The notes beneath the pieces are model-generated. The model searched no databases, had not been told where the DNA came from, and was given only the letters and a program-made list of their open reading frames with translations. A DNA stretch of 55,792 bases from NCBI GenBank assembly GCA_902541175.1, contig CACBPP010000006.1:1-55792 (forward strand). The letters run 5' to 3'. The DNA is from an uncultured SAR86 cluster bacterium (GTDB taxonomy: Bacteria; Pseudomonadota; Gammaproteobacteria; Magnimaribacterales; D2472). Positions 41,903-44,323 of this stretch are shown here, piece by piece. The position numbers and the translations under genes are program-made. Positions within the stretch are counted from its first letter, which is position 1. Each line of letters begins with the position of its first letter.

Positions 41903-44323
41903 ATGAAGAATTTAAAAATTATTTTTTTATCATTTTTACTTAGCCTAAATCTTAAAGCTTTTGATGAATTTTTAGTAAGCGATATTAGAATAATAGGACT
42001 ACAAAGAGTTTCTACAGGTAGTATTTTTAATGTTATCCCAATTAGTGTTGGAGACAGAATTGATGCAAGAAAATCGAATGATATTGTAAGATCATTATTC
42101 TCTACAGAGCAATTTGATGATATTCAAATAGGCAAGGATGGAAATACTTTAATTATTACCGTTGTTGAAAGACCATCAATTTCCGCAATAGAAATTTCCG
42201 GAAACAAAGCTCTAAAAACTGAGCAACTTCTAGAAAGCCTTGATGGAGTTGGAATTAAAGAAGGCGAGGTTTATAAAAGATCAACACTTGAAAAAGTTAA
42301 GTCAGAATTAGTTAGGTCGTATGCATCTAATGGAAGGTATGGAGCTGATGTTGGAATAGAGGAGATAAAAAAACCTAGGAACAGACTCGAAATAAATATA
42401 GAAGTTGATGAGGGAAAAAGTGCAAAAATTAAAAAGATAACTATCATTGGAAATGAAACGTATACAGATGAGGAATTACTAGAAGGTTTTGAATTATCGG
42501 AAGGGTCTTTTTTTTCATTTCTATCAAGCAATGATCAATATTCCAGAGAAAAACTTATTGGAGATATTGAAACACTTGAGTCTTATTACCGAGATAGAGG
42601 ATTTTTAAAGTTTTCCATAGAGTCTTCTCAGATTAGTTTGTCAAGAGATAAAAAATCAATCTTCATAACATACAATATTAACGAAGGCGAAAAGTACATT
42701 ATTGATGATGTTGATGTAATTGGTGATGTGCCATTTGAGGAGGAGATATATTTAGATATTATTAATAGCCTAAAAGAACAGACATATTCTCAAGCCCAAA
42801 TAACTTCTATTGAAGAGTTCTTTGTGAATGTGCTCGGCAATAGAGGATATGCGTTTGCTGAGGTAAGTGGAGATACCGAAATTATTGATGATTCAAATGA
42901 GATAAAACTAACTTTCACAGTTGTACCTGGGAAGAAAACTTATACTCGAAAGATACTCTTTACTGGAAACAATGTTACTCAAGATCATGTAATGAGGAGA
43001 GAAATGAGACAATTTGAAGGAGCATGGTCCTCTGATAATAGTATTGAAGCAGGAAAGGTAAGGTTAGAAAGACTAGGATATTTTAAAGAAGTTAATGTTG
43101 AAACTATTCCTGTTGTAGGCACTGATGATCAAATTGATATTGTTTATAGTGTAGAAGAGGAAACTACTGGAAGCGTTGGAGGAAATATTGGTTATAGTGA
43201 TTTTGGTCTAATGCTTGGATTTAATTTGCAGGAACAAAACTTTTTTGGTACCGGAAATACAGTTGGTATTGGGATTAATAAAAATATTTACAGTGAGATG
43301 TATAACTTATCATTCATGAATCCTTATGCAACAAAAGATGGAGTAAGTCTTGGTTACAATATTTATTTTAGAGAAACAGACTACGGAGAATTTAATGTTG
43401 CAAATTATTTAACTAATTCTAATGGTTTTGGCGCTCAATTTGGCTATCCAACATCAGATATTACAAGACTTGGTTTTAATTTAACATATGATAAGACAGA
43501 TATTGATGTTGGAACGCTTCCTGCAAGAGAAATATATGACTTTGTATCTGCAGAAGGAAATGTGTTTGAAACACTTTCAGCACAGTTCTCGTGGCAAAGA
43601 GTTACATTGAATAGAGGGTTATTTCCTACAGCAGGCGCCTCGACAGTCTTTAGTTTAAGTACAACAATACCTGGCAGTGATTTAAGTTATTATCGCGCAA
43701 GTGTAAGGCAAAGGTATTACAGACCACTTTCCTCAAATTTTGTATTTGGGTTTAATGGTGAATTGGGATATCTCGATGCCTACGGAGATACTAAAGAAAC
43801 TCCATTCTTTCAAAATTTTTACGCAGGTGGTCCTCGTTCATTGAGAGGTTTTGAATCAAATACCCTAGGACCAAGAAGCACAGATGCTCCTTGTTATGAA
43901 TTTAATTACGAAGAAGAAACATGTCCAAACCTGCTTGATACAGATGGAGACGGAGAGGCCGACACTCCATATATAAATCCTTATGCTAATTCAACATCCA
44001 GATATAGGGATAGACCAATTGGTGGAAATATAAAGGTTGAAGGTAGTTTACAGTTAATATTTAAACTTCCATTTGTTGAAGATCAAAGGTCTCTGAGATC
44101 TGCTTTTTTCTTCGATTTTGGTAACGTTTTCTCTGACAACTGTAAAGATTATCAAATTAATTGTGCTAAACCTGCTCTTGAAGATTTAAGATATTCATAT
44201 GGTGTTGGTGTTACTTGGATAACAGGATTTGGTCCTTTAAGCTTGGCAATTGCAAAACCAACTAATGCAGGACCTCAAGAGAGAACTGAAGAATTCCAAT
44301 TTACAGTAGGAAATGTTTTCTAG
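41903..44323 (+). CDS. bamA: Outer membrane protein assembly factor BamA
   Basis: BamA is the barrel core of the BAM complex and folds outer-membrane proteins. The 806-residue product (810 in E. coli) has an N-terminal signal sequence of about 19 residues, five POTRA domains (to about residue 420) and a C-terminal 16-strand barrel ending in Phe. The loop-6 motif is LRGFESNTLGPR near residue 650. In that loop a Cys pair is followed by the aspartate-rich DTDGDGEAD at residues 679-687, a calcium-loop-like sequence absent from E. coli BamA. skp follows after 36 bases. Confidence 0.97.
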   Translation: MKNLKIIFLSFLLSLNLKAFDEFLVSDIRIIGLQRVSTGSIFNVIPISVGDRIDARKSNDIVRSLFSTEQFDDIQIGKDGNTLIITVVERPSISAIEISGNKALKTEQLLESLDGVGIKEGEVYKRSTLEKVKSELVRSYASNGRYGADVGIEEIKKPRNRLEINIEVDEGKSAKIKKITIIGNETYTDEELLEGFELSEGSFFSFLSSNDQYSREKLIGDIETLESYYRDRGFLKFSIESSQISLSRDKKSIFITYNINEGEKYIIDDVDVIGDVPFEEEIYLDIINSLKEQTYSQAQITSIEEFFVNVLGNRGYAFAEVSGDTEIIDDSNEIKLTFTVVPGKKTYTRKILFTGNNVTQDHVMRREMRQFEGAWSSDNSIEAGKVRLERLGYFKEVNVETIPVVGTDDQIDIVYSVEEETTGSVGGNIGYSDFGLMLGFNLQEQNFFGTGNTVGIGINKNIYSEMYNLSFMNPYATKDGVSLGYNIYFRETDYGEFNVANYLTNSNGFGAQFGYPTSDITRLGFNLTYDKTDIDVGTLPAREIYDFVSAEGNVFETLSAQFSWQRVTLNRGLFPTAGASTVFSLSTTIPGSDLSYYRASVRQRYYRPLSSNFVFGFNGELGYLDAYGDTKETPFFQNFYAGGPRSLRGFESNTLGPRSTDAPCYEFNYEEETCPNLLDTDGDGEADTPYINPYANSTSRYRDRPIGGNIKVEGSLQLIFKLPFVEDQRSLRSAFFFDFGNVFSDNCKDYQINCAKPALEDLRYSYGVGVTWITGFGPLSLAIAKPTNAGPQERTEEFQFTVGNVF

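What the first reader, a model, noticed from the sequence alone, without database searches (positions are those of the whole stretch)
43855..44035. Aspartate-rich calcium-like motif in the BamA loop 6 region
After LRGFESNTLGPR and two cysteines the protein has DTDGDGEAD, which resembles DxDxDG calcium loops of EF-hand or thrombospondin type-3 repeats. E. coli BamA has the Cys pair in this loop but no such motif. Calcium is abundant in seawater and could steady the extracellular loop.
Basis: partly seen in the sequence, partly recalled or inferred. Interest (0 to 1): 0.5.

Follow-up and report, generated by a model that had tools for sequence, protein, structure and literature searches.

The report
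Predicted calcium-binding loop in SAR86 BamA
The protein that builds the outer membrane of SAR86 ocean bacteria carries, in one outward-facing loop, a short aspartate-rich segment kept exactly as a calcium-binding site would be, so its outer cap is probably held together by a calcium ion that the corresponding protein of E. coli is not expected to hold.

Summary
Window 43937..43963 encodes D679-T-D-G-D-G-E-A-D687 of an 806-residue BamA, just after a Cys664/Cys674 pair in extracellular loop 6. It is neither chance nor one genome's oddity: anchored on the flanks and Cys pair only, D1, D/N3, D5 and D/E9 occur in 101 of 101 distinct readable loops from two SAR86 families. On a tree, the four ligand positions took 5 amino-acid changes (all D/N or D/E) against 60 at the five positions between them. 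The trait needs one change on the tree, at the common branch of families f1 and f4, together with the Cys pair. It was in 0 of 17 loops read from the other two SAR86 families and its profile matched 0 of 364 non-SAR86 gammaproteobacterial genomes. Both AlphaFold2 models make the nine residues the loop between two short strands. That is the published calcium-blade-like pattern xDx[DN]xDGxxD, not an EF-hand and not a thrombospondin repeat. Best reading: a structural Ca2+ site stiffening BamA's outer cap. Metal binding is not shown. Seawater calcium alone does not explain it, since other SAR86 lack it.

The parts
41903..44323 (+). bamA, 806 aa, five POTRA domains and a 16-strand barrel
43781..44029 (+). 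extracellular loop 6 (aa 627-709), between model strands 197-210 and 294-304
   Evidence: AlphaFold2 model, (model residue n = aa n+416)
43841..43852 (+). LRGF, the conserved [VL]RG[FY] element of loop 6 (aa 647-650)
43892..43894 (+). Cys664, first of the loop-6 Cys pair; C in 57 of 57 motif-bearing rows
43922..43924 (+). Cys674, second of the pair, nine residues between the two
43937..43963 (+). predicted Ca2+ loop D679-T-D681-G-D683-G-E-A-D687 (side-chain ligands D679, D681, D683, D687; main-chain C=O of E685)
   Evidence: ligand assignment by analogy with PepX (PMC10536834)
43976..43978 (+). Asn692, invariant (0 aa changes, 10 codon changes); role unknown, the NPY it starts is also in f3 loops without the motif

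Best explanation
Loop 6 of BamA in two SAR86 families carries an acquired mini-module: a Cys pair (probably a disulphide) followed five residues later by a nine-residue calcium-blade-like loop. D1, D/N3, D5 and D/E9 side chains and the main-chain carbonyl of residue 7 probably hold one Ca2+. The ion closes the hairpin and, together with the disulphide, stiffens the outer cap that loop 6 forms over the BamA pore, helping to hold the LRGF segment in place. At sea-water calcium (about 10 mM, recalled) the site would be always filled, so its role is structural rather than signalling. Shown: the sequence, its conservation pattern, one change on the tree, its clade limits in the genomes searched, and the predicted loop topology. 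Inferred: metal binding, the metal's identity, the disulphide, and the effect on BamA.
For: Anchored on GPR-x-T and the Cys pair, not on the aspartates: D at 1 101/101, D or N at 3 101/101, D at 5 101/101, D or E at 9 101/101; positions 2, 4, 7 and 8 take five or six residue types and G6 is replaced by S, E, L, D or N in 11 of 101. Parsimony on a 59-row tree: ligand positions 1, 3, 5, 9 took 0, 4, 0, 1 amino-acid changes with 8, 11, 8, 12 codon changes; positions 2, 4, 6, 7, 8 took 13, 8, 9, 18, 12 amino-acid changes. Of 103 f1 and f4 genomes in which a whole-BamA query found the gene (87 and 16, hand count), 101 match the insert profile; the other two have a fragment or a partial match. Allowed swaps match solved sites: N at 3 is part of the motif definition, E as last ligand occurs in a Pyrococcus endocellulase site, and the glycine is replaced in several PepX genera. 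Two models put a strand at 260-262, the loop at exactly 263-271 and a strand at 272-273. PepX has the same ten-residue pattern, LDTDHDGKSD. The contact of loop 6 with the barrel wall matters to E. coli BAM: disrupting it is reported to have drastic effects (PMC8655018, passages).
Against: No metal was seen or modelled and no coordinates were available, so ligand distances are unmeasured. Mean pLDDT of the block holding the motif is 88 for the window protein but 74 for family f4, and the two alignments share rows. No solved BamA appears among the PDB matches of the insert profile (best hit E 0.021, an adhesin). The Ca2+ site of PepX is a warning: EDTA did not change activity and D196A behaved like wild type, although D194A/D196A was inactive with native-like stability. 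The sequences are related; the tree count addresses this only in part. Twenty of the loci were fetched because they matched the insert profile, and one of the six scan peptides came from the insert, so those sets lean towards it.
Confidence: 0.7

Rival explanations
1. The loop binds Mg2+ (or either ion) rather than Ca2+, with the same stiffening role.
For: Mg2+ is several times more abundant than Ca2+ in seawater (recalled); one crystal structure in the motif survey holds Mn2+ in such a loop, so other divalent ions can enter (PMC3123361).
Against: In that survey calcium is seen in all the newly described structures but that one; a loop with four carboxylates and one carbonyl suits Ca2+ better (established chemistry).
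Confidence: 0.12
2. The acidic loop is conserved for a protein or lipid contact (an unknown BAM partner, LPS, or a substrate), not for a metal.
For: Asn692, Cys664, Cys674, Pro663 and nearly Tyr665 are as conserved as the aspartates, so more than a metal site is under constraint; in Flavobacterium the outer loops of BamA bind surface partners (PMC12611786).
Against: Constraint alternates as in known ligand loops, and only ligand-compatible swaps (N at 3, E at 9) are seen; a contact surface would be expected to constrain positions 2, 4, 7 and 8 too.
Confidence: 0.12
3. The residues are lineage inheritance with no function (drift in young sequence).
For: The insert is limited to one clade and needs one change on the tree.
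Against: The four ligand codons changed 39 times with only 5 amino-acid changes, while neighbours changed freely; f1 and f4 barrels are only about 50-55% identical.
Confidence: 0.02
4. A true EF-hand or thrombospondin type-3 repeat inserted into loop 6.
For: DxDxDG core; weak Pfam scores at a cut-off of 10: EF-hand_5 in 7 of 38, TSP3_bac in 2 of 38 members, best E 0.014.
Against: No score is significant and the window's own insert matches no family; position 12 is Y, A, F or G, not acidic; flanks are strands, not helices; a single copy, not an array.
Confidence: 0.03

Closest known systems
Calcium-blade-like site xDx[DN]xDGxxD, e.g. PepX of Lactobacillus helveticus (PMC10536834, abstract start and passages seen)
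   Same: Same ten-residue consensus (LDTDHDGKSD there, LDTDGDGEAD here), closed loop between two strands, glycine replaceable; last ligand D, or E in a Pyrococcus endocellulase it cites.
   Different: Soluble hydrolase with Ca2+ seen in its crystal structure. Here a membrane insertase loop and no structure.
Dx[DN]xDG motif in 16 structural contexts, incl. integrin and PilY1 calcium blades (PMC3123361: abstract, section 5 part 1, sections 7 and 8 read)
   Same: Motif plus a further acid two residues later; convergent origin, often in a loop longer than in motif-less homologues; mostly extracellular.
   Different: Omp85/BamA is not among the contexts named in the parts I read; its Table S1 was not seen.
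Flavobacterium johnsoniae BAM complex (PMC12611786: section 5 part 1 and passages read)
   Same: Ions assigned as calcium on the outer face of a BAM machine; an extended BamA loop 6 filling the outer end of the pore.
   Different: The seven ions sit in an accessory lipoprotein, BamM, not in BamA; no Dx[DN]xDG loop in BamA is mentioned in the parts read.
AnaToc75 (Alr2269), an Omp85 protein of Anabaena tied to calcium uptake (PMC12548389: abstract start and one find)
   Same: An Omp85 protein linked to calcium.
   Different: Reported as an uptake route; a find for calcium-binding terms gave only a reference title.
E. coli BamA loop 6
   Same: VRGF element and a Cys pair with nine residues between.
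   Different: No aspartate loop after the pair.

Membership tests
BamA (TIGR03303) | profile score above curated cutoff, POTRA domains and Omp85 barrel | tested here: met
   775.6 bits vs 297; Pfam POTRA five stretches, Omp85; fold matches E. coli BamA, E 2.9e-33
Calcium-blade-like / Dx[DN]xDG site | Dx[DN]xD core with a further acid two residues after the six-residue motif | tested here: met
   101 of 101 loops D, D/N, D, D/E; G6 in 90 of 101; window protein has the full consensus
Calcium-blade-like / Dx[DN]xDG site | closed loop between two secondary-structure elements | tested here: met
   DSSP of both models: strand 260-262, loop 263-271, strand 272-273; prediction only
Calcium-blade-like / Dx[DN]xDG site | bound Ca2+ with ligand distances near 2.3-2.5 A | not testable with these tools
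   no ion modelling and no coordinates released
EF-hand | acid at loop position 12 | tested here: not met
   Y, A, F or G at 12
EF-hand | helix-loop-helix | tested here: not met
   strands flank the loop
Thrombospondin type-3 repeat | significant profile match, repeated units | tested here: not met
   2 of 38 members match weakly, best E 0.014 (TSP3_bac); single unit

The most novel reading that the evidence does not exclude
In SAR86 families f1 and f4 the outer-membrane insertase is calcium-dependent: the ion in loop 6 is needed for BamA to fold or to hold the pore cap and lateral gate in a working state, so outer-membrane assembly fails when calcium is removed. It would be the first metal site within BamA itself that my literature searches show.
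Probability: 0.15. Interest if true: 0.75.

Novelty: new variant of a known kind. Interest (0 to 1): 0.45.

Why it matters
BamA is essential and its loop 6 is central to how the machine works; a clade-wide metal site there, apparently evolved once, is a natural experiment on what that loop must do. It gives a one-residue test (D to N or A) of whether stiffness of the outer cap matters, in some of the most abundant bacteria of the ocean surface (abundance recalled). It also adds a beta-barrel insertase to the contexts in which the Dx[DN]xDG loop seems to have arisen.

Tried and rejected
Seawater adaptation as the cause: rejected as sufficient, because 0 of 17 loops read from SAR86 families f2 and f3 have the motif or the Cys pair and the insert profile matched 0 of 364 other gammaproteobacterial genomes (364 = 369 less the five SAR86 genomes at the head of its listing, 346 of the rest being unlisted). 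Habitat of individual genomes was not checked.

EF-hand and TSP3 membership: not met.

The first conservation table was circular, since its search pattern contained the aspartates; it was replaced, which anchors on GPR-x-T and the Cys pair. Of 105 DNA-distinct loops there, 4 were dropped for ambiguous bases in the site. A loop that had lost the Cys pair would be missed by that anchor; none was seen when the f1 and f4 loops were read by eye. One search is a second non-circular count: of 89 distinct DNA loops with C-x9-C, 87 have the motif; the two without are E. coli and one other gammaproteobacterium (L214).

Non-SAR86 loops read one by one: 83 loci besides E. coli (25, 58); 82 gave a readable loop in one script or another, L211 did not. 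Dx[DN]xDGxxD: 0 of 82. These loci come from the best-scoring matches, not a random draw; searches are the broader test.

f1 genomes without the insert (10 of 107): six had no BamA match, one has only aa 698-806, one a partial match, two were not searched. None is shown to have an intact BamA without it.

The tree used 56 rows chosen by hand, a quick search without bootstrap, and some long outgroup branches.

Fold search only confirmed BamA. Ligand geometry could not be measured. Literature: searches showed no report of a calcium site in BamA; the library is open-access only, and most listings were seen only as titles and abstract starts. In three BamA papers with the term Ca2+ it names counter-ions of LPS or lipid A in simulations.

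In one search the first residue of rows L125 and L128 prints as M because a GTG there is read as a start; no effect on the counts.

Full report
What is there. The window comes from a SAR86-type gammaproteobacterium: the nearest named contigs are SAR86, and the window is part of a 1.16 Mb, 13-contig genome. The ORF 41903..44323 (+) is BamA: TIGR03303 at 775.6 bits (cutoff 297), five POTRA stretches and an Omp85 barrel. It lies in an ordinary gene row, judged from the translations: frr, uppS, cdsA, dxr, rseP, bamA, skp-like, lpxD, fabZ, lpxA, lpxB, rnhB, dnaE (names by reading, only BamA was profiled). The BamA barrel predicted by AlphaFold2 (92-row alignment, mean pLDDT 85.9) matches solved E. 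coli BamA (E 2.9e-33). Loop 6 spans model residues 211-293 (aa 627-709). It holds LRGF (647-650), Cys664, Cys674 and D679-T-D-G-D-G-E-A-D687.

Not chance. The 27-base pattern for Dx[DN]xDGxxD occurs once in the window against none in 100 shuffles. In the whole genome it occurs three times, with 0 for the reversed control. The other two lie in a lipoprotein-like protein with an HEFGH motif and in a large protein with a signal-like start; both look exported (by reading).

Conserved as a metal site. I collected BamA loops from relatives. Anchored on GPR-x-T and the Cys pair, not on the aspartates, 140 loci carry the insert, 105 distinct as DNA, 101 without ambiguous bases in the site. In those 101: position 1 D 101; position 3 D 81, N 20; position 5 D 101; position 9 D 100, E 1. 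Positions 2, 4, 7 and 8 take five or six residue types, and the glycine at 6 is replaced in 11. On a tree of 59 sequences built without loop 6, ligand positions 1, 3, 5, 9 needed 0, 4, 0 and 1 amino-acid changes with 8, 11, 8 and 12 codon changes; positions 2, 4, 6, 7, 8 needed 13, 8, 9, 18 and 12 amino-acid changes. Position 3 and position 6 have similar entropy (0.72 and 0.74), so it is the kind of change at 3 (only D to N) that speaks, not its amount. Mean entropy of the whole insert (1.03) is no lower than that of other outer loops such as L4 and L7 (1.03, 1.02): the insert as a whole is not unusually conserved, only its pattern is. Asn at position 14 (Asn692) is also invariant; since NPY also occurs in the motif-less f3 loops, it need not belong to the site. 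Twenty loci were chosen by a match to the insert profile, and one of six scan peptides came from the insert; the loci were found with whole BamA.

Where it occurs. Within the order, the insert profile (A3, 34 positions) matched 116 of 203 genomes and 11 of 22 genera. By my count of the listed rows, these are 97 of 107 f1 genomes and 19 f4 genomes; no f2 or f3 genome is among the matches. Of the 103 f1 and f4 genomes in which the whole-BamA query found a match, 101 have the insert. Loops read in f2 and f3: 0 of 17 have the motif or the Cys pair (L103 and L116 look like the same contig and are counted once). In the class, 3 of 369 genomes matched, all SAR86, and two further SAR86 genomes, of f2, did not, hence 0 of 364 others. 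In the phylum draw, 1 of 397 matched, the window's own. Read directly, 0 of 82 non-SAR86 loops have Dx[DN]xDGxxD; one (L139) has a loose form, DKNGDWLRE. On a BamA tree without loop 6, f1 plus f4 form one group (SH-aLRT 98) and the trait needs one change; since the outgroups lack it, a gain is the simpler direction, but a gain at the base of SAR86 and a loss before f2 and f3 (also one group) is only one step longer. Cys pairs in loop 6 without the motif occur in E. coli and in L214, so the pair is not specific to the site.

How it probably works. Both models, one for the window protein and one for f4, give the same layout: strand 260-262, nine unstructured residues 263-271, strand 272-273. The nine residues are exactly the motif. 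Mean pLDDT of block 261-270 is 88 and 74. This is the topology described for the calcium-blade-like site, xDx[DN]xDGxxD, where D at 2, 4, 6 and 10 and the carbonyl of 8 bind the ion; PepX has LDTDHDGKSD with Ca2+ in the crystal (PMC10536834, passages). The same paper reports E as last ligand in a Pyrococcus endocellulase, and glycine replacements in PepX; both kinds are seen here. Rigden and co-workers (PMC3123361: abstract, section 5 part 1, sections 7 and 8) describe the motif as convergent, often in a loop longer than in motif-less homologues, and mostly extracellular; the SAR86 case fits each point. I infer one Ca2+ that closes the hairpin next to a probable Cys664-Cys674 disulphide and stiffens the cap over the pore. 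In E. coli BAM the contact of loop 6 with the barrel wall is reported to stabilise that part of the barrel, and disrupting it to have drastic effects (PMC8655018, passages). Whether SAR86 BamA needs the ion for folding or for gating is open; PepX warns that chelation may show little effect.

What is new. Searches showed no report of a calcium site in BamA itself. The nearest are the Flavobacterium BAM complex, whose surface lipoprotein BamM holds seven ions assigned as calcium (PMC12611786), and an Anabaena Omp85 protein tied to calcium uptake (PMC12548389, abstract start and one find). The Bacteroides BAM paper has no mention of calcium (PMC12578637, find only). The kind of site is known and its place in a BamA loop appears new, hence 'new variant of a known kind'.

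Limits. No metal binding, ligand distance or solvent exposure was measured. The sequences are related. The two AlphaFold2 runs share rows.

Noticed in passing
L116-L123 (family f3), L129-L130 (f2): Loop 6 of motif-less SAR86 relatives has its own repeated acidic turns (roughly D-x-x-G-N ... D-x-x-G-N-P ... NPY) and no cysteines; whether this is another stiffening device is unknown.
   Followed up: no
L139 (G219:C89): A BamA-like open frame of 1206 aa whose loop 6 runs on for more than 100 residues after RGF and holds a loose acidic pattern DKNGDWLRE, perhaps a separate metal loop.
   Followed up: partly
G102:C1:295409-297331, G097:C4:80129-82048: BamA matches with one in-frame stop each; assembly error or split gene not decided.
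   Followed up: no
G000:C4:11827-11853 (L225:130-2430): Exported-looking 766-aa protein with an HEFGH metallopeptidase motif and an EF-hand-like loop (DVNDDGVIDDEE).
   Followed up: no
window 44141-44164 (aa 747-754): A second Cys pair (CKDYQINC) in loop 7 of the same BamA; solved chain 9pxj has a Cys pair at the aligned place. Possibly a further disulphide.
   Followed up: no
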